Below, one piece after another: positions 2,975-56,470 of a DNA stretch of 64,000 nucleotides (its first letter is position 1; the number at the start of each line of letters is the position of its first letter). The position numbers and the translations under genes are program-made. Source of the DNA: Eublepharis macularius (lineage: Eukaryota > Chordata > Lepidosauria > Squamata > Eublepharidae); contig NC_072795.1 in NCBI RefSeq assembly GCF_028583425.1, positions 8,951,001 to 9,015,000 on the forward strand, in the 5' to 3' direction. Under the pieces are notes generated by a model. It saw nothing but the letters and a program-made list of their open reading frames with translations, was not told where the DNA came from and did not search any database.

Positions 2975-3154
2975 ATGTAGACGTCCAAATTAGTGCTTGC
3001 TATTCGTTTAAAAATATTTGCCACATTTAGTGTTGAGCTTTGGAGAAGTGTTTATTGGATAAGACCTTTCATAAAATATGAAGCCTCCCTCTCAATATTG
3101 TACATTTTATGTTTGGATGAAAGGACAAGGGACTACAAGTTGAAGATAAGGAGA

Positions 3155-3341
3155 ATCTCTTCTCTTCTCTTCTCTTCTCTTCTCTTCTCTTCTCTTCTCT
3201 TCTCTTCTCTTCTCTTCTCTTCTCTTCTCTTCTCTTCTCTTCTCTTCTCTTCTCTTCTTCTCTTCTTCTCTTCTCTTCTCTTCTCTTCTCTTCTCTTCTC
3301 TTCTCTTCTCTTCTCTTCTCTTCTCTTCTCGTCTTCTCTTT
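3155..3341. repeat. (TTCTC)n microsatellite
   Basis: About 35 near-perfect TTCTC units run through this stretch. A shorter array of the same unit occupies the homologous position (46488-46541) in the downstream CYP2 intron. The long open frames here in several frames are a by-product of the repeat. Confidence 0.97.
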
Positions 3342-3479
3342 GAAAGCCAACAAGTTGTAGAGGTTAGAGTGCCAGACTAAGTTCTGGGGACCTAGCTGCA
3401 AATCCCCATCTATTATGGGTGCTTGCTTGGTTTAGGTCTGTCAATTACACACATTTAGCCTAACCTACTTCAAAAATTA

Positions 3480-4680
3480 GACTAAAGCTGAAGAAAAACA
3501 CTAAAAGAATCATAGTGCCAAAATATAATCTAAATTACATTCCTAAAGAATTTAAAGACTATGTAAAGAACAGATTTGCATTACTGAGTTTCATTAACTG
3601 TGAACCAGAAGAGCCGTGGGCTGAAACCAGAGATATTATCAAGGAAGAATGTACAGAGACTGTTCCTGTAGCCAAAAGACAGAAGAAGCCCAGATGAATG
3701 ACAGATGAAACTTTTAAAATGGATAGATAAGAAGCAAAAGTAAAAGGAGGCATACATTCAATGATTTGCACAGAGAGAAAGAGATCCATTATTATAACGT
3801 GTGCAAAGGAATAGAAGAGAACAACAAAAAAGAAGAAAAAGAAATCTGTTCTACAATATCCAGGAAATCAACAGGAAATTCAAACCACAGATAGGGATGA
3901 TGAAATATAAACATGGAAATACAGTATCCAATCAGGAAAAAATAAAGGAAAGATGGAAACAATACACTGAAGAAATATACAGAAAAAATGGAAGGATGGC
4001 AGATTCTTTCAGGACAGAATATGGGGAAACAGAATGTTTTCTAATTGGCAAAACTGTCTGACAAAAATGTATATTATCTTCCTATCTGTTCAACCTATGT
4101 GCAGAACATATCATAAGGAAAGCTAGATTAGATTTAGAAGAAGGGGGAGAGAAAATTGGTGGAAGGAACATTAACCATTTGAAATGTGTAGATTACTGGC
4201 AGAAAGTAGTGAAGACTTGGGCCATTTTCTCACGCCCAGAAGATCGAGCAAAACTCATGGCATAAAAGCATCTTGCAAGCATACTTTCGCAGCATGATCC
4301 CATTTAATGGCCCTTTTCCAGACACCATAGGGCCATTAAAGGGGATTGTGCTGGGAGAAAATTGATTCATTTGAAATGTAGTGCTGAAGGAGAGTTTTGC
4401 AGACACCATGGACCACTAAAAAGACAAATAAGTGGGTACTCGATCAAATCAAGCCTGAATTCTCCCTAGAAGCGAAAATGACAAGAATGAGGCTATTGTA
4501 CTTTGGTCATGAGAAAGCAAGACTCACTGGAAAAAACAATAATACTAGGGAATGAGAAAGGCCCAAAATGAGATTGCTGGACCTAATAAAGGAAGCCACA
4601 TCCATCAGTTTGCAAGATCTGACCAAGGCTGTTAATGATTGGACATTTTGGAGGTCTTTCATACATAGGATCATCATAAG
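3480..4680 (+). mobile_element. Bov-B (RTE-type) LINE remnant
   Basis: Conceptual translation gives broken pieces of an RTE/Bov-B ORF: an IPKEFKDYVKNRF block near 3548, a [16 protein letters not shown] block near 3855, and a C-terminal EATSISLQDLTKAVNDWTFWR-like end near 4590-4655. It matches the element at 46690-48575 almost block by block. It has lost much of the reverse transcriptase core and its 3' end is cut by the repeat at 4681. Confidence 0.85.
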
Positions 4681-6163: not shown

Positions 6164-6679
6164 ATATGAGATATAGTTTGCTGACTCTGCAGAAAAGTTC
6201 AATACAGAATGTTTGCCATATATAAAATGGAAATTTGTTTATTTATCTATGCGCTGTTGAAAGACAAAATTTGTGCCTCTTCACTGAGTAAACTCTTTGA
6301 TAACTTCTATCAGCCATTTGTATATTCTGTATTATTTTAGAAGAGACAAATCTCATTTTGAGAATGGTTGTGCTAAAAAAGCAAATGTACACACTGAGAA
6401 GGAACTTCATGAAAACCAGTTTATAATTACAATAAGTCAATTAAGATAGAAATTATCAAAGTGCTGATATAATTTACAAAGGCTAGTGATACTAATGTGG
6501 GCAAAAGCTATCATTTTGTGACACCTTCGAGTTGATTTTTATTTAAAGTGGTACAGAAATGTCCATACTTAAGACCTCTGATGGATTAAATGACTTAACA
6601 ATGGTGTCACCTTAAAAGTAACCAAATGCCTTATTAACTGTATGTTTACCTTGCAAGGCTCACTCCAGAAATAATCCTG

Positions 6680-8984
6680 GGCCCAGCCTACTTACCAGAG
6701 AGCCAGTTTATGGGATATGGGATGTTGGCACAGGGCAAGGGCTCCTGCCACTATGTCTGAGCCCATGTAGCTCCCAGAGGCCCTGCATGACTATGTGTGA
6801 GCAAAAGAGCCTGAACTGCCAAGCTGGCCAAACAAGGCCAGCCATCCGGATACAAGTGGGCAGTCCTGATCAGCAGACCTGAGAGTTTTAGTTTCCATTC
6901 AGGCCCACCAGAAAGCTTTTGGGAAGGTTCTGCCCGGCCACGCTCAGGTTCTTCCAAAACTGGCTTTGAAGCAGGAGCAGCATAGCAGCAGAGGAGGAAC
7001 AGCAGTCTGCACCCATGTGGCAGCAAGTGGCAGGCAGTGGCAGTGAGCAGAGGCTGCAGCAGCAGCGTGTGCACTTGGGCCTGTCCAGGGCGCTCATTGA
7101 GTGGAGCTAGTGAGCAACATCAGGGGCCTGGGGCTGCCCAGCGGCTGCAGGTCAAGCACAAGCAGTGCATTTCTGGGCAGCCTCCCAGTGGCCCACAGAG
7201 AGCCTCGGCAGCATCGCTGGGCTTTGGGACACCCCCAGGGCAGTCTCCAAGGATAGAGGGCTTTAAAAGATGCACATGGGGGTAGTGATAGCGCCTACCC
7301 AGAAAGGCACCTCTACAGGCTACCTGAGGTTCCTCTTTCAACGGGCCGGTGTGGTGTCTAGGCAGACACTATTTGGCACCAAGAAGCCTGCTAGGTCAGA
7401 CTCCCAATGGGGGCCAAAGGAAAGCCTGCAACAGCCCCCATGACTGCTGCAGGGGGGCTCCTGAGGTAGACCCAGGGGATGGATGGGAGAGGCATGCAGC
7501 CTGACAGGTCTGTCTGCTGGGGCCCTTCTGAGGCTAAGAGACACTGCACTTTGCAAGGGTTATGTAGGGGGCTTGAATTACTCAATGAAAAGGTGAAAGA
7601 GGTGTCTCCATGTCTGGGGAATGCAGCCCCAAAAGCTATCAAAGCCCCCTCCCGGGCTGCAGGTAGGTTTCTTTGGGGAGGGGGTGCAAATCTTTGTGAG
7701 GGAGTTTGAGTGAGGGAATGTGTATTTTGCTGGCCTCCTGCATGCAACACCTCTGTCTAAATATTCAAAATTGGCTTCTTTTGTTATTCGCACATACACA
7801 CTTCTTCCCCGTGCTGCTGCAGGGACAATGAGGCCAGCCAGTTTCCTAAGAATCCTTGTGGTGATTCAAATTTTCCAAATGTCTTAAACGGTCTTTGTAA
7901 TTTTTTGCTATATCAATAATTTTGTGTGCTTTACTTCTTTGTGTTAGCATGGGGTTAAGTGGAGACCTCTGAGGTGAGAAGGAATCGGGCTGGAGGGGTA
8001 AGAGGAGCGTGCTGTGAATACATTGAAGATGTACCTTGAGGGGCAGGGAACTGCAGTTTTTAGTCTGAGTGCTGAGGGGAAACTGTTCATACTGTCTAGA
8101 TTAGGCAATCTGTGTGGAAGTTTTGAGTGTTCTACTTTGTGGATGAACACAGCCTAAGTGGAAAAATAAGGAAAGTCTTGTTCAGATAGGCGATTCGTAT
8201 GGAAGCCTGAGAGAGTCTAGGTCTGTGTGGTTGAAATGAGAAAATTATTCTGAGTGAAGAACTGTGTGGAAAAGTAGTCTTTGTGGCTGGGTCAGTGAAT
8301 ATACCTTTCAGAATATACAACTGTTTTGAAACCACCAAGTTTATGAACCTATTCTGAAACCAATATGCATATGTGCTTCTAAATAAAGTCTACTTCCGGT
8401 TAAGCAAAACGCCTGTTTCATAGGATTCTTTTTTACCTCACAACACCTCATGTGCTGACCATTCTGTCATAATACTACCTCTAAATAAGCCTTCCTATAA
8501 TAGTTAAATGGAAGAGATCTAAGGCAAGAGCCTTTGCTAGCAGCAAAAATCTTTTGAGAACACTGAGGAAGTTAGGGAGGCAGCAATATATAGGTCACAC
8601 AAAGCAGGTAAAACGTCACAGGTAATGTTAGCGGTGGGATTCAAACCCCAAAGGAAAAATGTTCTTAAGGTTAAAAAAAAAAGCTTGGGTGAAGTAAAGC
8701 TCAGTGTATGGGAAGGGGAAAAGGGTTGTGACTATAGGCGGCCCGAGGTAAAAGTTATGATCACTTAAAGAGGAGTTGTAATAGATATCCAAGGCAGATT
8801 GAAATAAAAAATATTATAGCTTTATTTTACCAACGGGGGAAAAATCCATTTCTAAAGGTTTTGTTGTTCTGTAAAACTAGTAACAATGAACTACCAACTA
8901 TCACTACCAACACTATGTTATGTAAGTATGGTTGTTTCAAAGTGGTAATTAGTATTTTTGAGGGAATACTCCTTCAGAATTTTA
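6680..8984. other. intergenic; GC-rich tract 6.7-7.75 kb, no gene recognised
   Basis: Homology with the downstream CYP2 3' flank stops at about 6670. The stretch 6700-7750 is markedly richer in G and C than its surroundings and has overlapping open frames on both strands, none matching a family I know. AATAAA near 8381 is followed by a sequence resembling a retroviral R-U5 end, but I could not find matching termini. Confidence 0.4.
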
Positions 8985-9213: not shown

Positions 9214-9607
9214 ATTATGTGAGAAAATACATGGATGCTTAAGTAATTGATATATGTTGGGGGTAGCAGGATGGAGTACACCACAAATAATCCAAATGAA
9301 TCCAATTAATCAAAATGAATATTCAAGTTATGAATTCATCCAGTTGCTGTGCAGGCCAAAGCAAAATCAAAACAAAAATTCTTATTTATTCCTTCTCTCA
9401 CGTGGTAGAAGGAATATTGTAATTATACATCTGCAAAGGAAGTAACAAGCAAAACAAGTGATGAGGTGCCCTACATGCCTCAATAGAGAAGTTGTGATGA
9501 AATAGATGCGTGGGCAGCTACATTCATGGGATGTGATGGGTAAGTATTTGGGTGTGCTAAAATCAGTGAACTGTATTCTACCAGTCAGCAAAGCCTTCCT
9601 CCAACCT

Positions 9608-9780
9608 AAAGCCAGCTGGGTGACCTTGGGTCAATCACAGTTCCTCCAGGGCTCTCTCTGCCCCACCCACCTCACAGAGTGATTGTTGTGGGGATAACAA
9701 TAACATACTTTGCAAACTGCTCTGAGTGGGTGTTAAATTGTCCTGAAGGGCAGGATATAAATCAAATGTTGTTATTGTGG
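9608..9780 (+). repeat. SINE, 3' part
   Basis: It contains the AGCCAGCTGGGTGACCTTGG core, the CCCCACCCACCTCACAGAGTG block and the GGGCAGGATATAAAT-TTGTTATT tail found in fuller copies at 32487 and 39931. The tRNA-like head is missing. Confidence 0.8.
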
Positions 9781-10486
9781 TTGCTGTTAAAGAGTCCCTC
9801 AATTGTATCGACACTTCCTCTGGTGTTAGCAGTCAGACCTCTCCTCCTACTGAAGGACAGTTTATAAATATGAAATCATACACACCCTTCCCCATATAGC
9901 ATAAGTGCAAAGCACTGCCGGGCCTGAAACAAAACAACATGGATGCCAGCAAGGCAAGAGCTTGGAAAAATATTTTTAAAGTAAAGTCAGAGCCGCTGGC
10001 TGACTAAACACCCACTCCTTGCCCCAGAGAAGTGTAACTTAACAAGTCTCCCAGAAAACTCCTGTCCCAACTAATCACATCCATGCTCTTCCTCACCCCC
10101 CCTCACCCACTTATCTTGATTAAGCACCACCTAACGCTATTCAGGAAAGCTGATAGTTTTCCCTACCCTCAAGGTACTCACCGGGTCATCAAGCACCATT
10201 TACACCTATAGTTCACTTCAGGTAGACCCATTAAACCTCTCCCAACTCATTATCCGCCCCTGGAAAACCCATCAAGTTTTGAGTTTTGAGGCTAAGATAG
10301 CAGTTTGCCCCAGGGAGCATTTTGCCCTATATCTGGGCTCTGGGCTCTGTAGCCACTAGTGAATGTGTGTGTATTGGATCCAAACACACACCCACAGAGC
10401 CATTTGGGCCTGTTCTCTTCTCCATGAAATGCAGGTCATTTTGCTGCTGGCTCCGCAGAGTTCTATCTGCAAGACTGGTAACGATT
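9781..10486. other. no feature recognised
   Basis: No exon, tRNA or recognised repeat boundary was found between the SINE tail and the solo LTR. Confidence 0.4.
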
Positions 10487-45300: not shown

Positions 45301-48300
45301 TCTTCGCAGTGGAAAATTGCATAACAGATTTTCTCTCTCTCTTTCAAAAAGCTGCCCCAGATTTCCTGCCTCCTGTTACATGCCTCCCCTGCCCTTGAAC
45401 TCCCAGAGGAATACCTGAACAGAGAGAATTTTCGGGAGAGAAAGAGCGAATACCGTCCATCACTCTTCTCCCCAGTGGAGAATCACATTAAGCGGCCATT
45501 CTTTCTGATTACGCTTCCCATGGAAATTTGTGGGAAACTGACACGTGAAGAACACATTTTGGGCATCAGATGTAGTCTCCCTCAGTGTTTCTGTTCCTTA
45601 GCAAAGGAACAGCAAGGAACAGCCCAGCTGCAGTTTCCAAAGTTTATTTAATTTTACGAAATAGATATGGTAAACATAAATTCAGTAATACTGCATCTGA
45701 TTCGGTATTCCCTTTTAAGTCTGGTAATACTAAATTTTACCAAATTGGGTAAAATTCAGAATTTTTAACTGGATGCCCAATCTGAGCTGCACACCACTAG
45801 ACTTTACTTCTGTGTACTGTCTACTGCTGTGATACAACTGGATAGTTGATAGGTTGTTTAATAGGTTAGTCTTAGAACTGCTTATGCTTTGTTCTGCATT
45901 TCTTCAACTCTGTATTAGATTCCTACTAGTTTGAATGCTTTCCAAATTTGCATTTATATACCGTTTTGCTGTTTATTGAAATATATTTGAAATTAACTGT
46001 ACTGACTCACACTACGTTATCTGTCTTGAGTCTCAGTGAGGAAAAGTGGACTATAAATATTGTAAATTAAAAGAAAAAATAAATAATAAAATATATGATA
46101 TACTGGATATCTTCCAAACCAACAGTTTATTCCTTTCAGGGGGCCACTGTAATTCCAGATGTTCGCTCCATTCTTTTTGATCCCAAGCATTGGGAAACCC
46201 CTCAAGAGTTCAACCCAAACCATTTTTTGGATAAGAATGGAAGTTTTGTGGAGAGAAAAGAATTTCTTCCCTTCGGAGCAGGTATATGTAGAAGTCCAAA
46301 CTAGTGCTTGCTATTAATATAAAAATATTACTGTATTTAGTATAGTTTTGGAGAAGTGTTCATTAGATAATAAGAGTCTCTGATCCACCTTTCATAAAAT
46401 ATGAAGCCTTCCTGTCAATACCATATATTTTATGTGTGGATGAAAGGTAAAGGCAAGTGACGTCAAGTTGGAGATAATGAGAGTCTCTTCTCTTCTCTTC
46501 TCTTCTCTTCTCTTCTCTTCTCTTCTCTTCTCTTCTCTTCGTAGAGTTGTAGAGGTTAGAGTGTCAGATTAAGATCTTGGGGACCTAGGTTTGAATTCCC
46601 GCTCTTATCATGGAAGCTTGTTGGGTTTAGGTGGGTCAGTCCCACACATTTAGCCTAACCTACCTCAAAAATTAGAATAAAGCTGAAGAAAAGCACTAAA
46701 AGAATCATAATGCCAAAATATAATCTAAATTACATTCCTAAAGAATTTAAAGGCCATGTAAAGAACAGAATTGTATTTTGAGTTACATTTGTGGGCTGAA
46801 ACCAGAGGTACTATCAAGGAAGAATGTGCAAAGACAGTTCCTGTACCCAAAAGAGAAGAGATCTAGATGGATGACAGATGAACTTTTTAAACATTGATAA
46901 AGATAGATGAGAAGCAAAACTAAAAGGAGACAGAAATAGAATCAGAATTCTAAATGCAGCTTTTCAACAACTTGCACAGAGAGACAGAGAGATCCACTAT
47001 AATAACCCGTGCAAAGAAATAGAAGAGGACAACAAGAAAAAGAGGTCCATTCCACAAAATCCAGGAAATCAAAAGAAAATTCAAACCACAGATAGGGATG
47101 CTGAAAGATCAACATGGAAATACAATATCTGATCAGGACAAAATAAAGGAATGCTGAAGAACTATACAAAAGAGATGAAAGGCTGACAGATTACTTCAAA
47201 GAAGAATCTTTTGAGGAAGAACTTGAAATCTTAGAAAATGAAGTGAGAGCTGCTCTCAAAGCAATTGGGAGAAATAAATCATCAGGAGCAGATGGCATAC
47301 CAATACAGCTATTTCAAGCTACAGAAACAGAGTCCATCAAAATCTTAAGAAGAATCTGTCAACAAATATAGAAAACAAAACAATGACCTACATACTGGAA
47401 ATGCTCAACCTTCATTCCACTTCCAAAAAAGGAATGCCGCAGAGTGCATCAACTACCGGACCATTGCAATAATTTCCCACACAAAGTCATGCTCAAAATT
47501 CTACAGCAAAGACTCTTACCATAATGGAACAAGAAATGCCAGATGTTCAAGCTGGATTCAGAATAGGACGAGACACTAGAGATCACAGTGGAAATTTATG
47601 ATGGCTAATGGAGTATACCAGTGACTTTCAGAAGAAAATCAGCGTGTTTTATAGATTTCAGCAAAGGTTTTGAATATGTAAATTATGAAAAGCTATGCAT
47701 GGTGTTAAAAGAAATGGGTGTGTAGCAATATCAGATTGTTTTGATGTGCAGTTTGTACTCTAGACAACAGACTACTGTCAGGACAGAATACAGGGAAACA
47801 ATTGGCTTAGATTTAGAAGAAGGTGGAAAGAAAATTGGTGGCAGCAACGTTAACAATTTGAAAGATGTAGATGACAATACATTACTGTCAGAAAATAGTG
47901 AAGACTTTAAATGATTACTGGAAGTGCCAATGCAGGATTACAGATGAAAATCAAGAAGACAAAAGACTACTGAGGAATTACACTGTTTTAAGGTTGACAA
48001 TGAAGAAATTGAAATAAAGATTTTCTATTCCTTGGCTCACTCCTCAAGCAAAAAGGAGACTGCACCCAAGAAATTGAAAGGAGACTGAAACTTGGAAGAG
48101 CAGCTGTGAAGGGAACTAAACAAGATCCTTAAAGATAAGGATGTATCTTTGGGGGACATAATCCAAACTATAGTATTCCCCTTACCATTTATGGATGTGA
48201 GAGTTGGACACTGAAGAAAGCTGACAGAAAGAAAATTGATTCATTTGAAATGTAGTTCAGAGGACAGTTTTGTTTGTTTGTTTGTAGTCCGCCTTTCTCA

Positions 48301-51300
48301 CTGAGACTCAAAGTGGGTTCTAGATCAAATCAAGCCTGAATTCTCCCTAGAAGCTAAAATGACAAGTTTGAGCCTATTGTACTTTGGTCATGAGAATGCA
48401 AGACTCGCTGGAAAAGATAATAATACTAGGGAAAGAAAAAGGCAGTAGGATTAGAGGAAGGCATCCATCAGTTGGCAAGATCTGAGCAAGGCTATTGATA
48501 ATAGGACATTTTGGAGGTCTTTCATTTATAGTGTCGCCGTAAGTCAGAAGCAACTTGATGGCACATAACACAGAGAGAGAGAGAGAGCTTACACAGCTGT
48601 TTTGGGGATGAAATGGAGGAAAGGAGAATGCATTAAGCTGCTTTGAGTCCCCATTGGGGATAAAGGAGGGATATGAATGAAGCATATAAAATAAATAATA
48701 AATTTTATATAATGTGATAGAGGCATTATAAAGTCTGGCCAAAAGGATTAGTAATGCTTATTCTGCTGGCAAGCCGTCAATATTTTAGGCAGAAATCTTC
48801 CTTGGCCATTCGACCTCAGATTCCAAAGCTGGAGGTATCAGGGGTATAATGAAAATCCTGTGTTCTACTATGGTGATCACTAGGGATGTGCGTTTCGGCA
48901 TTCAGAATGCCGAAAGAATGCCGAAACAAAAGTGTTTCGGCTTCTTTCGGGGAATGCCGAAACGTTTCGGGGAATGCCGAAACGTTTCGGGTAGCCGAAA
49001 GAAAAAAGCCGAAACGTTTCGGGATTCTTTCGGCTTTCTTTCGGCTTTTCTATGGGAAAATGCCTCCGTCTTCCAGGACGTCTGGAGGAGGCATTTTCCC
49101 ACCGAATAAGCCCAAAATTGGTGGGGACCTTCCTCTAACCCTTCTCTAACAACCACCCAAGTTTCAGACAGATTGGACTTTGGGGGGCCATGTTATGGCC
49201 CCCCAAAGCAGGTCCCCCCATCCTCCCATAAGAAAGCGAAGGAGCAGCATATTGTTAGCATGCTGCTGCTGATCTTTCTTCATTATTTCCTATGGGGAAA
49301 AAATGAAGAGGCAGGCTTCCTTTGCCAGGGGTGGCATTTTGCATGCAAAATGCCCCCCAGCCCTCAGGGGCCCTTCTCCCACCCCTCCTCCCACCCCCCA
49401 CCAAGGCTCAGCCTGCTCCCACTTGGGGGGGCCATTTCATGGCCTCCCCAAGTAGGTGCTCTAATCTCTACCACTGACAGCTGGGGGAGGCTTGTGTTGC
49501 CAGGGGCGGCATTTTGCATGCAAAATGCCCCCCAACCCTCTGGGGCCCTTCTCCCACCCCTCCTCCCACCCCCCACCAAGGCTCAGCCTGCTCCCACTTG
49601 GGGGGGCATTTCATGGCCTCCCCAAGTAGGTGCTCTGCTCTCATCTCTACCACTGACAGCTGGGGGAGGCTTGTGTTGCCAGGGGTGGCATTTTGCATGC
49701 AAAATGCCCCCCAGCCCTCTGGGGCCCTTCTCCCACCCTTCCTCCCACCCCCCACCAAGGCTCAGACTGCTCCCACTTGGGGGGGCCATTTCATGGCCTC
49801 CCCAAGTAGGTCCTCTCAGCCCCTAAAGTCCACCCCTTACAGCCCCACACAAACCCAATTCCCCCCCAGCTGCCACACACAGACCCAAATCCCCACATTA
49901 GCCCCTCACAGACCCAAATCCACCCCCACCTGCCCCACACCCATAACCCCAGGAACAGGCTGGCAAAGGCCAGCCCTCTCCCTTTGTTCCCTATGCTGGG
50001 AACTTCTAAACTCTCTTTCCCTGGGCAATTCTGCACAGCCCAGGGGTGCCACAATGGTGGGCACACTTCTGAGTGCCAGCTGGTCCCTGTGAAAGAGCAC
50101 CTGAACCACAGACACCCTCCCTCAAATTCCCCCACCACCTACAGAGATGGCTGGCCAGCCAGCCCCATTGTTCCCTATGATGGGAACCAACTGCACAACA
50201 AAGAATAAAACAAGAACAACACAAAATAAAGTTTTAAAAAAATTATATTCTCCCTTCCAAAGTACAAGTAGGCAAAGCATTATGACACATTACACCAGCA
50301 GTCCCCCACACAGAAAAATTAAAACAAAACTCACTTAACATCAGAGAATCACAAAGCATGATTCCTGTCAAAAACACTTTATTTCTTGAACAGCTTTAGG
50401 TTACACAGCAGGGGGGAACACCAAAGGGCATGGCAGCACTATCTTACACAAAAATAACACAACTCACTTAACATCAGAGAATCACAAAGCACAATTCCTG
50501 TTAAAAACACTTTATTTCTTGAACAGCTTTAGGTTACACAGCAGGGGGGAACACCAAAGGGCATGGCAGCACTATCTTACACAAAAATAACACAACTCAC
50601 TTAACATCAGAGAATCACAAAACACAATTCCTGGCAAAAACACTTTATTTCTTGAACAGCTTTAGGTTACACAGTAGGAGGGCACAACAGGGCATGATAG
50701 CAATGTACTGCAAAAAATAATACAACCCACTTCACCGTTTTTGACAACAATTGTGTTTGTGTGATTCTCTGATGTGAAGTGAGTTGTGTTATTTTTGTGT
50801 AGTACACTGCTTTCCTGCTCTGTGGTGCCTTCCTAAAGCAGTTACAGAAATAAAGTGCTTTTGACAGCAATTTTTTGGGGTGATTCTTTAATGTGAAGCG
50901 AGTTGTGTTATTTTTGTGTAAGATAGTGCTGCCATGCCCTTTGGTGTTCCCCCCTGCTGTGTAACCTAAAGCTGTTCAAGAAATAAAGTGTTTTTGACAG
51001 GAATCATGCTTTGTGATTCTCTGATGTTAAGTGAGTTTTGTTTTAATTTTTCTGTGTGGGGGACTGCTGGTGTAATGTGTCATAATGCTTTGCCTACTTG
51101 TACTTTGGAAGGGAGAATATAATTTTTTTAAAACTTTATTTTGTGTTGTTCTTGTTTTATTCTTTGTTGTGCAGTTGGTTCCCATCATAGGGAACAATGG
51201 GGCTGGCTGGCCAGCCATCTCTGTAGGTGGTGGGGGAATTTGAGGGAGGGTGTCTGTGGTTCAGGTGCTCTTTCACAGGGACCAGCTGGCACTCAGAAGT

Positions 51301-54005
51301 GTGCCCACCATTGTGGCACCCCTGGGCTGTGCAGAATTGCCCAGGGAAAGAGAGTTTAGAAGTTCCCAGCATAGGGAACAAAGGGAGAGGGCTGGCCTTT
51401 GCCAGCCTGTTCCTGGGGTTATGGGTGTGGGGCAGGTGGGGGTGGATTTGGGTCTGTGAGGGGCTAATGTGGGGATTTGGGTCTGTGTGTGGCAGCTGGG
51501 GGGGGAATTGGGTTTGTGTGGGGCTGTAAGGGGTGGACTTTAGGGGCTGAGAGGACCTACTTGGGGAGGCCATGAAATGGCCCCCCCAAGTGGGAGCAGT
51601 CTGAGCCTTGGTGGGGGGTGGGAGGAAGGGTGGGAGAAGGGCCCCAGAGGGCTGGGGGGCATTTTGCATGCAAAATGCCACCCCTGGCAACACAAGCCTC
51701 CCCCAGCTGTCAGTGGTAGAGATGAGAGCAGAGCATCTACTTGGGGAGGCCATGAAATGCCCCCCCAAGTGGGAGCAGGCTGAGCCTTGGTGGGGGGTGG
51801 GAGGAGGGGTGGGAGAAGGGCCCCAGAGGGTTGGGGGGCATTTTGCATGCAAAATGCCACCCCTGGCAACACAAGCCTCCCCCAGCTGTCAGTGGTAGAG
51901 ATTAGAGCACCTACTTGGGGAGGCCATGAAATGGCCCCTCCAAGTGGGAGCAGGCTGAGCCTTGGTGGGGGGTGGGAGGAGGGGTGGGAGAAGGGCCCCT
52001 GAGGGTAGGGGGGCATTTTGCATGCAAAATGCCACCCCTGGCAAAGGAAGCCTGCCTCTTCATTTTTTCCCCATAGGAAATAATGAAGAAAGATCAGCAG
52101 CAGCATGCTAACAATATGCTGCTCCTTCGCTTTCTTATGGGAGGATGGGGGGACCTGCTTTGGGGGCCATAACATGGCCCCCCAAAGTCCAATCTGTCTG
52201 AAACTTGGGTGGTTGTTAGAGAAGGGTTAGAGGAAGGTCCCCACCAATTTTGGGCTTATTAGGTGGGAAAATGCCTCCTCCAGGCGTCCTGAAAGACGGA
52301 GGCATTTTCCCAAAAAAAAAAACCCGAAAGAATGCCGAAAGAATGCCGAAAGAATCCCGAATCCCGAATCCCGAAAGAGATTCTTGTTTCGGCTTTCGGC
52401 TTTAACGGTAGAGAATCTTGTTTCGGGTAATCCCGAAACAAGAAAGCCGAAAGTTTTTTCCTTGCACACCCCTAGTGATCACTCTTTTCATGTAGCAATG
52501 CCCCTCTCCATTTTGCAGCCAAGTAACAGGAGGAAATATTCTTCCATGAGTTTAGCAGAAAAAATGGGTAAAATCCCAAAGAATCAACTGCTTCAGCATC
52601 TTCTTTCCCTTTGTCTATCTTTCTTTATATCTACTTTTGTGGTTCTTGTTATATGTAGCATTGCTGGAATATATATTTCACATTATTGCTTATAGGTGTG
52701 AAGTGTGCTGTAAGCTAGTTAGCAGTGATTAGTATTTCACATGCAAGGAAATTTGGGTGGACTTTCATCATTCTCCATCCTAATCTCAGCCATGTTTTTC
52801 AAAAATACTGAGTACATCATTATGTAGCTGCTGCACAACTGGGCAGAGATTTGTAGAGGAAATGTTCTTTGCTTTATATTCTAAAGCTCATGGAGATGTC
52901 AGGACTAGACATGGGCATGAACAGCATTACGAACAGAAAAAAACCACGAATAGCCTAATCTGCTGTTCTTGAACAAGCTGTTCCTGAGGCCCCATCCTAA
53001 ACGAACAGGTGGTCCTTGCAAGCCTCATTCATTGCCTTTGGCAGCTGTTCAGCAAGCCCGCCAGTCTGGTACCTGCAATCAATCCCCTTGGCAATCGGAG
53101 GCAGGGAGGGACTGAACTCTTTCTGAACTCCTTCTGGCTTTCCTTCTGGCTTTAACCCTTCAAAGTACTTCCAGCAGAGAGTCCTATTTTTGCCACTGTG
53201 AAGAGAAAATGACAGCCAACGTGGAGACCCATGGATCATGCCTTTCCCTGGGGGCAATCTCTCTGAAACTTGGGGGTCTTCAGAAAACAGTGAGGACTAT
53301 GTCCCCTGCAAATTTGGTGGGGTTGGACATTGGGAAGGTCACTTTTGTAACCCCTCAAAGTAGCTGCCAGCAGACACTGCTGTTTTTGCCAGGACTGGGC
53401 CCTTTAAACTATCAGCTGGCAGGCATCATGGAGGAATCCCCCCCTGCCAGATGATAGTTTAAAGGGATCTTTAAAGGGCCAGGTAAGTGGGTTTGAGGGG
53501 AAGGGGTGCTAAGTGGGGGGGTTGGGGGGGTTCTGGCCCCCATGAACAATGAACAACAAACATGTCCGGGAACAGTTAGTGGAGGACCCTGACCCAAATC
53601 AGCCCACAGTGTGGTTCTGATCCAGTGATCAAAAGTGGTTATGGAAAGAATGGTGGTTGTAGTAAAGGGTATAGTTCTGGAGCTACTTTGAGAAGAGGAA
53701 ATAGGCTTTATAAGCTCACATTCTCTTCTCTAAATTGAAACTAGCTATTGGTCAGGGAAATATACAATTAGGAGTATGTAGAGTAAACATAATATTTCCC
53801 TAATCTCTTGGCAGGGGCCCGTGAGTGTATTGGTGAGCAGCTGGCAAGGATCGAGCTCTTCATCTTCTTCACCAACCTGCTGAGGTCATTCACCTTTCGG
53901 CCACCAGAAGGAGTGAAAAGAATCAACGAAAAGCCTGTTGTACGATTGGTTACCCCTCCCCATCCGTATAAGATCTGTATTGTTCCCCGCAGTAATGGAT
54001 CATAA
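24194..54005 (+). CDS. CYP2J-like: complete nine-exon CYP2 (CYP2J-like) cytochrome P450 gene
   Basis: Joining the nine exons gives 1485 coding bases, 494 residues, the normal size for family 2. By family it is a heme-thiolate monooxygenase held in the endoplasmic reticulum, using NADPH-P450 reductase; CYP2J enzymes oxidise fatty acids and xenobiotics. Visible landmarks: hydrophobic anchor 3-22, PPGP hinge 31-34, helix C WKQQR 121-125, I-helix AGTET 298-302, ExxR 355-358, and heme loop 429-438 with Cys436. Exon lengths and phases equal the standard CYP2 pattern and all introns are GT-AG, so the gene appears functional. CYP2J over other CYP2 subfamilies is my judgement from the GEQLARxELFIFF, GLGKK and QEEA blocks; a tree is needed. 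It lies in tandem behind another copy (5578-5768). Intron 8 is the longest at about 7.5 kb and carries the 3.6 kb palindrome. Confidence 0.92.
25489..26244. mobile_element. hAT-type MITE with perfect 8-bp TSD (intron 1)
   Basis: Termini are TAGAGGTGGTCA and TGCCCACCTCTA, flanked by TTAGCCAT at 25481-25488 and 26245-26252. The ends carry many copies of a GGACC/GGTCC motif. No transposase is encoded. An 8-bp duplication is the hAT hallmark. Confidence 0.9.
27260..27840. repeat. GC-rich repeat-like tract (intron 1)
   Basis: It contains repeated modules of the type CCAGCAGTGCTGCCAGG / CCTGTGCCCTGTAG and ends in two near-copies of a CCAGGTCTACC..ACCTTGTAAAA block. It shares a CAGGCTGCT..GAG..CACTGC module with 30945-31030. 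Class unknown. Confidence 0.45.
27957..28150 (+). mobile_element. hAT-type MITE, left end (intron 1)
   Basis: TAGTGGTGGGCACAGACC has the form of the other hAT termini in the window and is followed by paired inverted motifs (GTTCATTGTTCACAAATG, TTACGAATGTGCC). I could not place the right terminus, so the end given is only the clearly related part. Confidence 0.5.
28943..29357 (+). mobile_element. Penelope-like 3' end insertion, 14-bp TSD (intron 1)
   Basis: Flanked by CAATGGATAAAGAC at 28929-28942 and 29358-29371. It holds the last codons of the element's reading frame (matching the end of the fragment at 2690-2745) and then the 3' region with the AAACGTCAGGAACTACAAT block. It is a strongly 5'-truncated copy and gives the forward reference for the inverted copies at 2053 and 5955. 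Confidence 0.88.
29905..30067 (+). CDS. CYP2J-like: CYP2 gene exon 2 (residues 58-112)
   Basis: 163 bases between a GGCAG acceptor and AAAG|GTAAGT donor. Encodes [20 protein letters not shown] and the [12 protein letters not shown] block, the usual helix A-B region that includes substrate recognition site 1. Ends in phase 1. Confidence 0.93.
30107..30635. repeat. GTTGCCAACT-type interspersed repeats (intron 2)
   Basis: GTTGCCAACTCTGGGTTGGAA at the start, TAGAGTCCACCCTCCAAAG in the middle, and GATCAGTTGCAATTCTGGAAGATC..ACCTGGAGGCTGGCAACTC at the end. The order matches the family, with an unrelated stretch inside. Confidence 0.6.
30822..31148. repeat. GCCAGATC/GCCAGGTC-type interspersed repeat (intron 2)
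   Basis: Begins GGTTGCCAGATCCCTCTGTCC with a TCCTGGCGAGAGGC block and a GATGACGTCACCTCC block, and ends CCCATGGCAGGGGACTGGAAA. It resembles 23415-23690 and 37995-38380 in module order. Confidence 0.5.
31477..31590 (+). repeat. GTTGCCAACT-type repeat, 5' part (intron 2)
   Basis: GGTTGCCAGCTCTAGACTGG, AGAGATTCTGGGTGTGGAG and TTTGGGGAGGAGACGGACCTC follow the family order; the 3' part is missing. Confidence 0.6.
32090..32195 (+). repeat. GTTGCCAACT-type repeat, 3' part (intron 2)
   Basis: AGGGGAACTGATCTCTGTGG, AGATCAGTTGTAATTCCAGG and ACCTGGAGGTTGGCAACCCT: the complete 3' end module. It may be the separated 3' half of the copy at 31477. Confidence 0.65.
32212..32440 (+). repeat. possible LTR fragment (intron 2)
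   Basis: A promoter-like CCCCTATATTG is followed about 70 bases on by AATAAAGCAGTG and a CAGCTCCTGTGAGTAC stretch, the order expected for an LTR. No termini or duplication could be fixed. Confidence 0.3.
32487..32743 (-). repeat. tRNA-derived SINE, near full length (intron 2)
   Basis: On the minus strand: GAGCCAGTTTGGTGTAGTAG head with pol III A box, a GGGTTTGATTCC B box, the CCAGCTGGGTGACTTTGG core, CCCCACCCACCTTACAGGG, and an A+T tail with CTGAAGGGCAGTATAAATC. Confidence 0.9.
32996..33145 (+). CDS. CYP2J-like: CYP2 gene exon 3 (residues 112-162)
   Basis: 150 bases, TTCAG acceptor, AAGG|GTATGT donor. Encodes [16 protein letters not shown] (helix C, Trp121 and Arg125 contacting heme propionates) and [19 protein letters not shown]. 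Phase 1 on both sides. Confidence 0.94.
33730..34032 (-). repeat. second type of tRNA-derived SINE (intron 3)
   Basis: Minus strand starts GAGCCCTGTGGCGCAGAGTGG (A box), has GAGTTCGATCCTGG (B box), a body ending GAAGGCAATGGCAAACCACC and a TACCTTTAAT tail. The tail is of the Bov-B-like kind found in Sauria SINEs. A second partial copy lies at 35208-35290. Confidence 0.8.
35208..35290 (+). repeat. fragment of the second SINE type
   Basis: GTTCAGATGGCCGGCTCAAG to AGTTTCCAGGGGGTAAA matches the middle of the SINE at 33730-34032 in opposite orientation. It sits within gypsy sequence. Confidence 0.75.
35329..35493. mobile_element. 165-bp hAT MITE with perfect 8-bp TSD, inside gypsy
   Basis: Termini CAGGGCTTTTTTTC and AAAAAAAGCCCTG are inverted repeats, flanked by GTTTCCAC at 35321-35328 and 35494-35501. 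The centre carries alternating GCACATGTGTGCGCACATG. Confidence 0.92.
36568..37279. mobile_element. hAT-type MITE with GTTCGTG subterminal repeats, inside gypsy gag
   Basis: Termini TAGAGATGGGCAC and GTGCCTATGTCTA; flanks GTTATGAT and GTTAGGAC agree at six of eight bases. Many GTTCGTG / CACGAAC motifs lie near both ends. It belongs to the family of the copy at 58571-59290 and the truncated one at 52906. Confidence 0.82.
37768..37928 (+). CDS. CYP2J-like: CYP2 gene exon 4 (residues 162-215)
   Basis: 161 bases, TTTTTCAG acceptor, CATTTT|GTGAGC donor. Encodes [19 protein letters not shown] and [15 protein letters not shown], the helix E-F region with substrate recognition site 2. Ends in phase 0. 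Confidence 0.93.
37995..38380. repeat. GCCAGGTC-type interspersed repeat (intron 4)
   Basis: Starts 66 bases after exon 4 with TTCCAGGTCTCTATAACCTCC, has ATGACATCACTTCCTGGATG and a second ATGACATCACTTCTGGAAG, and ends CACCTGGGAACTCTACCCCC. Modules recur at 23415 and 30822. Confidence 0.5.
38612..38788 (+). CDS. CYP2J-like: CYP2 gene exon 5 (residues 216-274)
   Basis: 177 bases, CTTTCCTGTAG acceptor, GAGAAA|GTAAGT donor. Encodes [19 protein letters not shown] and [14 protein letters not shown], the F-G loop region that in CYP2 enzymes dips into the membrane. Phase 0. Confidence 0.93.
38800..39925. other. intron 5, no feature recognised
   Basis: Only chance open frames and a poly-T run near 39273 are seen before the SINE. 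Confidence 0.4.
39931..40281 (+). repeat. composite SINE, two heads joined (intron 5)
   Basis: A SINE head and core (GAGCCAGTTTGGTGTAGTGG to GACCTTGGGTCAGTCACTTAAG) runs into a second, nearly full SINE beginning at its GGACTCTAATCTGGAGAG block. The pair ends in GGGCGGTATATAAAT and a (TTG)n tail. Confidence 0.85.
40897..41038 (+). CDS. CYP2J-like: CYP2 gene exon 6 (residues 275-322)
   Basis: 142 bases, AATAACAG acceptor, CCAAG|GTGAGA donor. Encodes the I helix with [17 protein letters not shown], the Thr300 oxygen-activation site. Phase 0 in, 1 out. Confidence 0.94.
41812..42052 (+). repeat. tRNA-derived SINE, head degraded (intron 6)
   Basis: GGACTCTAATCTGGAGAGCC, CCCCACCCACCTCACAGGGTG and a GGGTGGTATAAATTAAATG tail ending in (ATT)n. 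Confidence 0.85.
42300..43000 (+). mobile_element. CR1/L3-type LINE fragment (intron 6)
   Basis: Broken frames with [14 protein letters not shown] (the YADD site is lost), [29 protein letters not shown], and [16 protein letters not shown] follow the order seen at 16500-18480. Confidence 0.8.
43006..43172 (+). repeat. duplicated intron 6 end and exon 7 start, upstream copy (decoy)
   Basis: This aligns with 43337-43501 at clearly less than full identity, including AATAAAGCTTTGG, the acceptor TTTCCCTTAG and the next AAAAAGTCCAGGAG bases of exon 7. If used, this acceptor would reach TGA within a dozen codons. It looks like an old local duplication later split by a MITE end at 43230-43336. Confidence 0.75.
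43487..43674 (+). CDS. CYP2J-like: CYP2 gene exon 7 (residues 322-384)
   Basis: 188 bases, TTCCTTTAG acceptor, CGTAAG|GTAACA donor. Encodes [12 protein letters not shown] (ExxR, Glu355/Arg358) and [19 protein letters not shown]. The usual IPKG turn reads IRKG, an unusual Pro-to-Arg change. A decoy acceptor lies about 340 bases upstream. Confidence 0.93.
43783..44010 (-). repeat. tRNA-derived SINE (intron 7)
   Basis: On the minus strand the copy shows the GGTTTGAATCCCATTACTGCC B-box region and a CAAGGCCACCTGCTGAGTTCATGG-type body with a TATATAAGAGCAG tail (given here on mixed strands). It belongs to the subtype at 62705 and 62938. Confidence 0.75.
44060..44640 (+). mobile_element. CR1/L3-type LINE fragment (intron 7)
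   Basis: Blocks resembling [30 protein letters not shown] and [18 protein letters not shown] appear in the order of the CR1 copy at 18100-18540. Several stops. Confidence 0.75.
44819..44888. repeat. 17-bp tandem repeat, about four copies
   Basis: Unit TTAATACAACTTTGTAC, repeated head-to-tail with single-base variants. Confidence 0.9.
44890..46139. other. intron 7, mostly unassigned
   Basis: A right end of a hAT-like element (GCACACCACTAG at about 45789) preceded by a TTCGGTATT..ACCAAATT stretch is visible; its left end is not. No exon is seen. Confidence 0.35.
46140..46281 (+). CDS. CYP2J-like: CYP2 gene exon 8 (residues 385-432)
   Basis: 142 bases, CCTTTCAG acceptor, GGAGCAG|GTATAT donor. 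Encodes [32 protein letters not shown] (the PxRF-equivalent meander) and LPFGAG, the start of the heme loop. Phase 0 in, 1 out. Confidence 0.94.
46488..46541. repeat. (TTCTC)n microsatellite (intron 8)
   Basis: About eleven units, at the position equivalent to the longer array at 3155-3341 in the upstream CYP2 copy. Confidence 0.95.
46690..48575 (+). mobile_element. Bov-B (RTE-type) LINE, degraded (intron 8)
   Basis: Blocks in order: [47 protein letters not shown], a VCFIDFSKAF-like block, [15 protein letters not shown], and the end GTCGCCGTAAGTCAGAAGCA. It keeps more of the reverse transcriptase than the upstream copy. Frameshifts throughout. Confidence 0.9.
48895..49055. repeat. CGAAA subterminal motif array, left end
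   Basis: About sixteen CGAAA/TTTCG motifs in both orientations, mostly as GCCGAAA. The matching array at the right end spans about 52325-52460. Dense subterminal motifs are the usual transposase-binding sites in hAT elements; binding here is inferred. Confidence 0.85.
50341..50740. repeat. 133-bp tandem repeat, three units, left of palindrome centre
   Basis: Units start at TCAGAGAATCACAAA at 50341, 50474 and 50607. Each has CACTTTATTTCTTGAACAGC and, on the other strand, AATAAAGTG. The right arm has two inverted units (about 50762-51026). Confidence 0.9.
52906..53575 (+). mobile_element. hAT MITE of the GTTCGTG family, right end lost (intron 8)
   Basis: Starts TAGACATGGGCATGAACAGC and continues with CAATCTGCTG, GAACAAGCTGTTCCTGAGGCCCC and CCTTGGCAATCGGAGG, as in the copies at 36568 and 58571. 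The left flank GTCAGGAC has no partner and the right terminus is missing. Absent from the upstream CYP2 copy. Confidence 0.75.
53815..54005 (+). CDS. CYP2J-like: CYP2 gene exon 9 (residues 432-494, stop)
   Basis: 191 bases from a CTTGGCAG acceptor to TAA. Completes the heme loop [10 protein letters not shown] (Cys436 ligand) and encodes [20 protein letters not shown] and a PRSNGS end. Same length and phase as 5578-5768. Flanking homology to that copy runs to about 54965. Confidence 0.95.
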
Positions 54006-54599: not shown

Positions 54600-55685
54600 A
54601 TCAGCTGTTTGTGCATTCTGTTTTCTTTTAGAAATGGCAAGTCTGATTTTGAAAATGACTTTACTAAAAAAGGAAATGTACACACTGAGCAGGAATATCA
54701 AAACAATCAATCTATCATTATGATAACTCAAATTAGGAAAGAAAGTAAGAAAGTGCTGATGAAATGTACAAAGTCTAGGAACACTGAGGTGGGCAAAAGC
54801 TATCATTCCATGTCACCTTAGTTGATTTTTCTTTAAAGTGGTATGGAAATGCCCGTACTTAAATCCTCGGTTGGGTCAATTGACTTCACATTGGGTTTAC
54901 GTTAAAAGTAACCAAACGCCTTATCAATTGTACACAAAAGCTGCAAAGTTCACTCCAGAAATAAGCAGATCCAGTGTGATGACATAGCTGCTATTTTATT
55001 TGCTCTCATATGTTTTTATGCACAAATGACATTCTTAATGTTCGCATCTAGAGCTGACAGCCCCCAGGGTAGCTTAGTCTACCAGCATGTGTGTGAGAAA
55101 AGGGGAAAATAGAGCATGTTTGCAACGCCCCCTCCCCAACTCGGGATGGATCAGGAAGAATCAACGGCAAGAAATCAGCACAAGTGGTAGCCAAAGAGAA
55201 GGGGAATTCGTTCAACCTTCGCCCACTTTGGCAAGTGAGACGGAAACAAGACTTTACAGTGACACAGCAGAGCATTGGAGCCAACCCTCCACCATCTCAT
55301 CATTGAAGTACATTTTACATAAGTGTGTGTATATATGTGTGTGTGTGAATGGTTTTCATGCCACTATACCTAAAATTAAACTGGTAATTCTACTTTGATT
55401 CAGAAGATCAGAGTTCATCATGATCAGTCACCACCACTGATAAATCTTCCTGCTAATTCTCTGTACTTCTCACCCATTTTCTAAGAAGTTAATTACAATT
55501 TTTAATATAGCTAGCTTCCTGACACTCTTAACCTCAATTTCCCTCCCACCCTCTGCCTGGATTATAAGAAATCTTTCCTTTTTCCACTTCCCGTATCTGA
55601 CTAAGGGAGCTTTGACTCTTTGACACACATCTAGGAAATCTAGTTGGTCTTTAAGTTGCTTTCAAGAGTTTGTTTGTACTCTTTC
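54600..55685. other. downstream flank, no gene recognised
   Basis: Homology with the upstream CYP2 3' flank ends near 54965. A short (GT)n stretch near 55323 is the only other feature. Confidence 0.4.
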
Positions 55686-55691
55686 CTGCAG

Positions 55692-55739
55692 CGGTATGAT
55701 TTCCTCCCATGGCTCATGAAAAATCTGTTACCTAATCAT
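55692..55739 (+). pseudogene. CYP2 exon 5-like fragment, truncated
   Basis: After a good CTTTCCTGCAG acceptor come codons reading RYDFLPWLMKNLLP, clearly related to the start of exon 5 of the complete gene ([13 protein letters not shown]). Homology stops after about sixteen codons where an LTR-like repeat begins. No exons 1-4 lie between it and the gene upstream, so it is a relic of a further tandem copy. Confidence 0.75.
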
Positions 55740-56470
55740 GTCTCCTTGCAAAGTGGGGGAATTAGAGTGCAAGGAGAGGCTACGAAAGGAGGGGTAACAG
55801 GGATCTTTCGTGCCTATGTATACGAGGATTCCTTCTTCCAGAAAACTTTTTCAATAAAGAAGCAGATGTTCAACCAAAAAGGTTTTTTATTTATAAAATA
55901 ATAAAACACAAATGGCATAAAATACCCACAGAAAATATATACACAAAACACAAATAGAGCTAACTAAAGAAACAGTTCGGAAAGTGTGAAGTGAAGTTCA
56001 AGGATTGGGTGATATTTACCAGTTCCAGGAGAGCGAAGAAGTTTGTGCGGAGGAGCAGCATGAATGGCCAGCATCTCGAGAAAGGGAGCTCAGTAATAAT
56101 CTGAGATTGTATAGGGGGAGATTCCAGAACACACACTGAGCACATGGCAGGACAGTCAGATATACTGTGAAACATGCCCTAAGCCAGGACTAAGAGTCTC
56201 TGCCCTAAAACAATACCTTGATGGTTTTGTCCGGAGGTGGAACAATAGGACTGGGAAAGCTTGATTGTGCCTACCTGAGAGGAATTAAAGGTGTAAAACA
56301 TTAATTGAAGATGCCTGGTGACCAGATGGGTGAGGCTTATCAGTTCCTGAGTAACTCAGGTGGGGAAATGGGATCAGGAAAGATTGGGAGGGTGGATGAT
56401 GAGATTAATTCAAGAGCTTCTGGAGACCCTTTTGTTATTCAGTTCTGTACATCTCTGGGGTGGGGGCTGA
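55740..56470. repeat. unclassified LTR-like repeat (member 3), interrupts the exon 5 relic
   Basis: GGGGGAATTAGAGTGCAAGG and GGAGCAGCATGAATGGCCAGC correspond to blocks of the repeat at 14690-15715. It begins directly inside the CYP2 exon fragment. Confidence 0.5.

What the first reader, a model, noticed from the sequence alone, without database searches (positions are those of the whole stretch)
48881..52474. A 3.6-kb nearly perfect palindrome with hAT ends inside the last intron of a CYP2 gene
Seen directly: TAGGGATGTGC / GCACACCCCTA termini, a perfect GTGATCAC duplication, and arms of about 1.7 kb that are inverted copies separated by a loop of only a few dozen bases. MITEs are normally a few hundred bases with short inverted ends. 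Such a large fold-back with no transposase is unusual, and the near identity of the arms suggests recent birth or ongoing arm-to-arm correction. Inference: the CYP2 pre-mRNA would carry a very long hairpin that could attract RNA editing or Dicer, or slow splicing of intron 8.
Basis: partly seen in the sequence, partly recalled or inferred. Interest (0 to 1): 0.8.

Follow-up and report, generated by a model that had tools for sequence, protein, structure and literature searches.

The report
Palindromic jumping-gene family in leopard gecko
The odd 3.6-kb mirror-image sequence in a gecko P450 gene is one recently inserted copy of a large family of mirror-image jumping genes, apparently moved by a much bigger relative in the same genome whose tail end it carries in duplicate.

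Summary
Window 48881-52474 is a 3,594-bp element with hAT-like ends, a perfect 8-bp target duplication and inverted arms of about 1.6 kb (97.8% alike), in the last intron of a CYP2J5-like gene of the leopard gecko.

It is not a one-off. The genome holds 3,265 matches to its loop word and 7,249 to its arm word. Of 40 left ends fetched from one contig, 26 carry arm sequence; 24 of these have a right end with an 8-bp duplication.

The other 14 are non-palindromic. Twelve encode a hAT transposase, 11 of them in one unbroken frame as far as read. One was read in full: 10,632 bp, perfect duplication, 919-aa frame. The window element is such an element's 5' end, an inverted copy of its 3' region, then its 3' region and end.

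The arms are alike by inheritance: an independent sister copy (6 mismatches in 3,593) shares 13 of the 17 arm differences. Part of the subfamily's left arm looks overwritten by right-type sequence, but that evidence is modest.

This is a foldback-like, non-autonomous hAT: a new variant of a known kind. Effects on CYP2J RNA are untested.

The parts
48873..48880 (.). left copy of the 8-bp target-site duplication GTGATCAC
52475..52482 (.). right copy of the 8-bp target-site duplication
48881..52474 (.). whole non-autonomous palindromic hAT element (3,594 bp)
48881..48891 (+). left terminal inverted repeat TAGGGATGTGC
52464..52474 (-). right terminal inverted repeat TAGGGGTGTGC
48881..49048 (+). 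left (5') end module: 92.3% identical to the 5' end of the transposase-bearing element L030; 14 CCGAAA/TTTCGG motifs in the outer 165 bp
52310..52474 (+). right (3') end module: 9 CCGAAA/TTTCGG motifs; lies inside the 571 bp (51904-52474) that match the 3' end of the L030 element at 96.3%
49005..50641 (-). left arm (inverted copy)
   Evidence: window coordinates by arithmetic
50737..52396 (+). right arm (in the orientation of the transposase-bearing element's 3' region)
   Evidence: window coordinates by arithmetic
50642..50736 (.). unaligned centre between the gapped arms; the wider centre 50466-50899 is made of imperfect inverted ~133-bp repeats
49861..50465 (-). 605-bp stretch perfectly complementary to 50900-51504
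50900..51504 (+). partner of the 605-bp perfect duplex
49017..49048 (+). 32-bp overlap where the 5' end module and the inverted 3' module both align (TTTCGG(G/C)ATTC-type repeats): the presumed junction
   Evidence: (element 137-168)
46083..46281 (+). stretch of the CYP2J5-like reading frame ending with exon 8 (splice donor GTATAT at 46282); the exon start was not mapped
53815..54005 (+). exon 9 (last) of the CYP2J5-like gene; the intron splits the heme-binding motif

Best explanation
The element is a non-autonomous hAT transposon of a palindromic family that is very abundant in the leopard gecko genome. Shown: hAT-like ends, 8-bp duplications with the nTnnnnAn pattern, and larger elements in the same genome with the same two ends, one of which was read in full with an intact hAT transposase frame. 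Shown by alignment: the window element consists of a 5' end like that element's (~168 bp), an inverted copy of its 3' region, a centre with polyadenylation-type repeats, and its 3' region and 3' end in normal orientation. Inferred: it arose when repair or replication of a copy ran from the 5' end, switched at the shared TTTCGG-type subterminal repeats into the 3' end in inverted orientation and copied inward, leaving out the transposase gene. Because both ends with their clustered CCGAAA/TTTCGG motifs were kept, the transposase of the large elements can still cut and paste it (inferred); the arms are passengers (inferred). This copy inserted recently in CYP2J5-like intron 8 with its arms already nearly identical, as it inherited them from its source copy. 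The intron's RNA would carry a very stable hairpin; whether that matters for splicing is unknown.
For: Ends and duplication. 4,071 left-end matches at up to 1 mismatch (control 5) and 3,229 right-end matches at up to 3 (control 0). Of 40 left ends fetched (the first exact ones on contig C1), 24 had a right end and a duplication (23 perfect, 1 with one mismatch); L014 and L017 among them are one insertion copied by segmental duplication. Duplications: T at position 2 in 21 of 25 and A at position 7 in 23 of 25, the pair L014/L017 counted twice. Arm word 7,249 matches, loop word 3,265, controls 0; of the first 100 exact arm matches 37 convergent pairs, 0 pairs in another orientation, 26 singles. 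L030 element: 10,632 bp, perfect duplication GTGATGAG, no long inverted arms, with the modular match described; zf-BED 5.6e-8 and Dimer_Tnp_hAT 2.9e-15; 919-aa open frame; C-terminal match to Hermes transposase 3.2e-8. 12 of 14 non-palindromic loci encode the transposase with no stop in the 238-919 codons read; 11 of the 12 do so in one frame. 24 of 24 elements longer than 1.5 kb have 10-14 and 6-12 motifs in the outer 165 bp and 0 or 1 inside. The window copy differs from L023 at 6 of 3,593 sites and has a different target duplication.
Against: Transposition by the large elements' transposase was not tested. The inner arms are about 18% diverged from the two large elements compared (L030, L022) while the outer ~570 bp are 96-98% alike, so the exact parent is not one of the two; the centre matches them only at 66-69%. 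The 5' end modules are 92.3% alike, not identical. In 5 of the 7 other palindromic loci whose right end was printed it is only 69-83% like the window's, so not all of the family may share one partner. One of the 12 transposase loci (L012) matches in three frames, that is with apparent frameshifts. The sample of copies is from the start of one contig.
Confidence: 0.85

Rival explanations
1. The palindrome is an assembly artefact (a fold-back read or a mis-joined arm).
For: Long perfect inverted repeats are hard to assemble in general (general knowledge, no call).
Against: Arms end inside the element's own ends, not in the flanks, and differ at 36 sites; 19 of the 24 fetched copies with target duplications have both core arms longer than 900 bp; exact arm words are paired convergently in 37 cases and in no other orientation.
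Confidence: 0.01
2. The palindrome formed at this locus, by two nested or opposed insertions or a local inverted duplication after insertion.
For: Near-identical arms in this copy.
Against: Copy L023 on another contig has the same layout, length 3,595 against 3,594, and shares 13 arm-arm differences.
Confidence: 0.01
3. Ongoing arm-to-arm gene conversion keeps each copy's arms alike.
For: Both arms of the window copy, L023 and L046 are right-type at 9 of 9 core sites that separate left from right arms in the main group; these three copies' six arms form one clade in the core tree (support 87); separation of all left from all right arms is rejected for the core (AU p 0.0017); the L013/L020/L027/L041 group forms one clade for both outer arms (support 89).
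Against: Same-copy arms are sisters in 0 of 20 copies (core) and 1 of 22 (outer, support 59). The core sites all lie within one 134-bp stretch of an internal tandem repeat that L030 and L022 lack, so the direction of change is open there. The window copy's clade is not recovered in the outer tree, nor the L013 group in the core tree, and the AU test on the outer arms does not reject left/right separation (p 0.09).
Confidence: 0.06
4. The long arms are functional terminal repeats needed for transposition, as proposed for Galileo, rather than passengers.
For: The palindromic form is very abundant; in Galileo extra transposase binding sites lie in long TIRs (PMC3688188, passages).
Against: The large transposase-bearing element read in full has no long inverted arms; the candidate binding motifs lie almost only in the outer 165 bp; the outer ends are asymmetric.
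Confidence: 0.1
5. The true partner is another, unsampled autonomous hAT lineage, and the large elements found merely share ends.
For: Inner arms about 18% diverged from L030 and L022; 5 of 7 right ends of other palindromic loci printed are only 69-83% like the window's.
Against: The window's 29-bp right end occurs exactly on large elements: of 33 exact right ends on C1 0-79 Mb, 26 pair with a left end 9.7-20.4 kb away and 7 at 2.3-3.8 kb (one left end is used twice); outer arms 96-98% alike.
Confidence: 0.15

Closest known systems
Galileo (P superfamily, Drosophila; Foldback-like)
   Same: DNA transposon family with very long, internally repetitive inverted ends, and recruitment of 3' sequence into both ends in inverted orientation (PMC4168063, passages; PMC3688188, passages).
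   Different: Different superfamily; here the transposase and target-duplication pattern are hAT, the outermost ends are not part of the palindrome, the one transposase-bearing element read in full has no long arms, and it is in a vertebrate with thousands of arm-word matches.
hAT MITEs and internally deleted hAT elements (Ds of maize type; recalled)
   Same: Keep both ends of an autonomous hAT, lose the transposase, move in trans, leave 8-bp duplications.
   Different: Most of the length is an inverted duplication of the 3' region, and it is 3.6 kb rather than a few hundred bases.
Mu killer (maize; recalled, no call)
   Same: A partial inverted duplication of a transposon that would give a long hairpin RNA.
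   Different: As recalled, Mu killer is a single locus that silences MuDR; here it is a mobile family, and no RNA evidence exists. Up to the first forward AATAAA after the frame (6620), overlap with the predicted L030 transposase mRNA is about 0.1 kb at 74%.

Membership tests
hAT superfamily (non-autonomous member) | 8-bp target-site duplication | tested here: met
   Perfect at the window copy; 23 perfect and 1 one-mismatch among 40 fetched left ends, 16 without one found within 6 kb
hAT superfamily (non-autonomous member) | nTnnnnAn target pattern (Ac-like; label recalled) | tested here: met
   T at position 2 in 21 of 25, A at position 7 in 23 of 25; one of the 25 is a segmental duplicate
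hAT superfamily (non-autonomous member) | short terminal inverted repeats shared with an element that encodes a hAT transposase | tested here: met
   Exact 29-bp right end and 92.3% left end on L030's 10,632-bp element, which has zf-BED and Dimer_Tnp_hAT
hAT superfamily (non-autonomous member) | moved by that transposase | not testable with these tools
   Needs a binding or excision assay
MITE | short (usually under ~0.8 kb; limit recalled), high copy, no coding capacity | tested here: not met
   High copy and no domain, but 3.6 kb; the 20 elements with two long arms are 3.0-4.2 kb
Foldback-type element | long inverted arms making up most of the element | tested here: met
   arm alignments of 1.0-1.7 kb in 20 of 25 elements examined (window copy and 24 fetched); the other 5 (L009, L024, L028, L045, L047) give 0.2-0.8 kb
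Foldback-type element | arms reach the very termini | tested here: not met
   Outer 80-125 bp not palindromic except for the 11-bp ends

The most novel reading that the evidence does not exclude
A self-renewing palindrome: in source elements one arm is now and then overwritten by copying the other, for example by fold-back synthesis during gap repair after hAT excision. Lineages would thus start afresh with near-identical arms, and the inner arms stay 0-1.7% apart although they are about 18% diverged from the two transposase-bearing elements compared. Palindromy would then be regenerated by the transposition cycle rather than merely inherited. (I lowered the probability from 0.3 to 0.2 after one search showed that the core diagnostic sites are clustered in one repeat unit and unpolarised; 2 of 3 outer sites, where the left arms of L009, L028, L047 and the L013 group all keep the left type, still support it.)
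Probability: 0.2. Interest if true: 0.75.

Novelty: new variant of a known kind. Interest (0 to 1): 0.6.

Why it matters
Kilobase-sized near-perfect palindromes are usually thought of as unstable (general knowledge), yet this genome seems to hold some 3,000 of them (3,265 loop-word matches) as young mobile DNA, at least one of them inside a gene, with candidate autonomous partners that have intact transposase frames. That makes it a natural system for asking how vertebrate cells replicate, transcribe, edit or silence long hairpins, and how fold-back transposons are born from ordinary cut-and-paste ones. A copy 0.17% diverged from its sister, inside a P450 gene of a widely kept species, is an accessible test site.

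Tried and rejected
Assembly artefact, local origin and per-copy arm correction were considered and rejected (see rivals). A coding function for the arms was rejected: long open frames exist but no Pfam domain in six frames. No Rfam family reached its threshold in 45-56 kb. A viral-contig scan with an arm word gave nothing. Looking for an empty site among paralogous introns inside the window gave only short repeat matches; the genome-wide empty-site query did not complete. A whole-genome count of transposase copies did not complete either, so the share of transposase-bearing elements rests on 14 of 40 loci and on pairing 33 of the 100 listed right ends (the other 67 lie beyond the stretch covered by the left-end list). 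My first reading, that the founder of the window copy's subfamily had its whole left arm replaced, was weakened on re-checking: the core sites lie in one 134-bp stretch of a tandem repeat absent from L030 and L022. Rows set aside: the L046 right arm (misaligned by an internal expansion; its 555 private columns are ignored); the L028 left inner arm (within-copy value 0.556, a wrong alignment); the L045 row, dropped before the topology tests; the dN/dS row of L011 (7 codons); the distances of L045, L016 and L037, which look inflated by misaligned repeats. The segmental duplicate L017 was left in the trees and counts; only for picking the sites was it left out.

Full report
WHAT IS THERE. The element spans 48881-52474 (3,594 bp) with 11-bp ends that match at 10 of 11 positions and a perfect GTGATCAC duplication. 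Its halves align as inverted copies over 1,618 columns at 97.8%. The longest perfect duplex is 605 bp. Folding 49861-51300 as RNA gives -1024.5 kcal/mol (no shuffles at that length). The outer 80-125 bp are not part of the palindrome apart from the 11-bp ends. No protein domain is encoded.

WHERE IT IS. Exon 8 of a P450 gene ends at 46281 and exon 9 begins at 53815, so the element lies in a 7,533-bp intron that splits the heme-binding motif. The exons I read match cytochrome P450 2J5-like of Eublepharis macularius at 304 of 304 residues, and contig C6 has the same length, 145,573,841 bases, as the contig listed for that protein. I take the genome to be the leopard gecko's.

HOW MANY. The left-end pattern has 4,071 matches at up to one mismatch (control 5), the right-end pattern 3,229 at up to three (control 0), an inner-arm 24-mer 7,249 and a loop 24-mer 3,265 at up to one mismatch (controls 0). 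About two arm words per loop word (2.2) is what a palindrome predicts. Among the first 100 exact arm matches there are 37 convergent pairs 948-2,673 bp apart, none in another orientation, and 26 singles whose partner is absent or not exact.

WHAT THE COPIES LOOK LIKE. I fetched 40 left ends, the first exact ones on contig C1. In 24 a right end with a matching 8-bp duplication was found (23 perfect). These 24 and two more (L019, L048) carry arm sequence; 19 of the 24, with the window copy making 20, have both core arms longer than 900 bp. In the remaining 14 only the left end matched within the 6 kb read. L014 and L017 have identical flanks, as do L011 and L012 on the left side, so each pair looks like one insertion copied by segmental duplication.

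THE LARGE RELATIVE. L030's element is 10,632 bp with a perfect GTGATGAG duplication. It encodes a 919-aa open frame with zf-BED and a hAT dimerisation domain, and its C-terminus resembles Hermes transposase. Of 3 proteins found in the large protein search the nearest is 55% identical, again from Eublepharis. Twelve of the 14 non-palindromic loci encode this protein with no stop in the 238-919 codons read; 11 do so in one frame, L012 in three pieces in different frames; the other two, L011 and L021, show LINE-type frames. dN/dS between L030 and five others (L010, L012, L022, L033, L035) is 0.54-0.91, as for young copies with weak constraint. The L030 element has no long inverted arms.

HOW THE PALINDROME IS BUILT. 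Element positions 1-168 match the 5' end of the L030 element (92.3%); 3024-3594 match its 3' end (96.3%); 137-582 match the same 3' end inverted (97.1%); further in, both arms match its 3' region at 82%. The 5' module and the inverted module overlap by 32 bp in TTTCGG-type repeats. I infer a template switch at those repeats during repair or replication. The left junction looks alike in the four copies printed (window, L014, L020, L047), which suggests a single origin. The inner arms are about 18% away from L030 and L022 and the centre matches them only at 66-69%, so the parent is a relative of these elements and not one of the two, or the ends were exchanged later.

WHY IT STILL MOVES. CCGAAA/TTTCGG motifs sit in the outer 165 bp: 14 left and 9 right in the window copy, 0 in the inner 3,264 bp; the same holds in 24 of 24 elements over 1.5 kb, one of which has a single inner motif. 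The 10.6-kb element shares them (13, 9, and 3 inside). They are candidate transposase sites; binding was not tested. Of 33 exact right ends on C1 0-79 Mb, 7 pair with left ends at 2.3-3.8 kb and 26 at 9.7-20.4 kb (one left end is used twice, and lengths over 15 kb may be chance pairings or nested insertions).

WHY THE ARMS ARE ALIKE. The window copy and L023 (C1) differ at 6 of 3,593 sites. They have different target duplications and share 13 arm-arm differences, with 3 substitutions and 1 gap private to the window copy. Identity was therefore inherited from a source copy. Whether the source's left arm had been overwritten by right-type sequence is less certain. For it: nine core sites separate left from right arms in the main group and the window copy, L023 and L046 are right-type on both arms at 9 of 9; their six arms form one core clade (support 87); forcing all left arms apart from all right arms is rejected for the core (AU p 0.0017); at three outer sites the left arms of L009, L028, L047 and the L013 group are left-type throughout, while the window copy's left arm is right-type at 2 and L046's at 3. 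Against it: the core sites all lie in one 134-bp stretch of a tandem repeat that L030 and L022 lack, so they may record one repeat-unit change of unknown direction, and L009's left arm is mixed there; the clade is not recovered in the outer tree and the outer AU test gives p 0.09. Same-copy arms are sisters in 0 of 20 and 1 of 22 cases, so per-copy correction is not the rule.

WHAT IS IN PRINT. Seven searches of the held library listed, by title and start of abstract, no palindromic or foldback hAT family in a squamate. The leopard gecko draft-genome paper (PMC5080775, passages) reports 3.47% DNA transposons and its main text does not contain the word hAT. Galileo papers (PMC4168063 and PMC3688188, passages) describe the nearest structural parallel that I found. 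Repbase and Dfam were not available, so the family may have a name there.

LIMITS. The copy sample comes from one contig. There is no RNA evidence, no other gecko genome and no empty site. Effects on CYP2J expression are inference.

Noticed in passing
L030, L022, L033, L038, L040 (C1), element positions ~0.8-3.1 kb: The large hAT elements contain tandem arrays (units of about 171 and 294 bp) in variable number, which may account for much of their length range (about 10.6-13.4 kb in the sampled loci whose right end was listed).
   Followed up: partly
C1:5377608 and C1:6369128 (L014, L017); C1:3718832 and C1:4536254 (L011, L012): Pairs of loci with identical flanks and target duplications about 0.8-1.0 Mb apart: segmental duplications or a duplicated stretch in the assembly.
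   Followed up: partly
L011:1867-6197, L021:2070-5843: Long open LINE-type frames (endonuclease and reverse transcriptase domains) downstream of hAT left ends: 1,258 aa in L021, over 1,400 aa and still open in L011.
   Followed up: partly
window 55644-55901: A second stretch resembling a P450 exon by eye (YDFLPWLMKNLLP...) downstream, so the window may hold a tandem CYP2J array.
   Followed up: no
L030 element 6346-6759 and 9373-9782: A 414-bp module holding the only two forward AATAAA signals of the element, both after the transposase frame, is present twice, about 3 kb apart, 95.7% alike.
   Followed up: no
L046: One palindromic copy (4,158 bp) of the window copy's subfamily has an expanded tandem repeat in the right arm only.
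   Followed up: no
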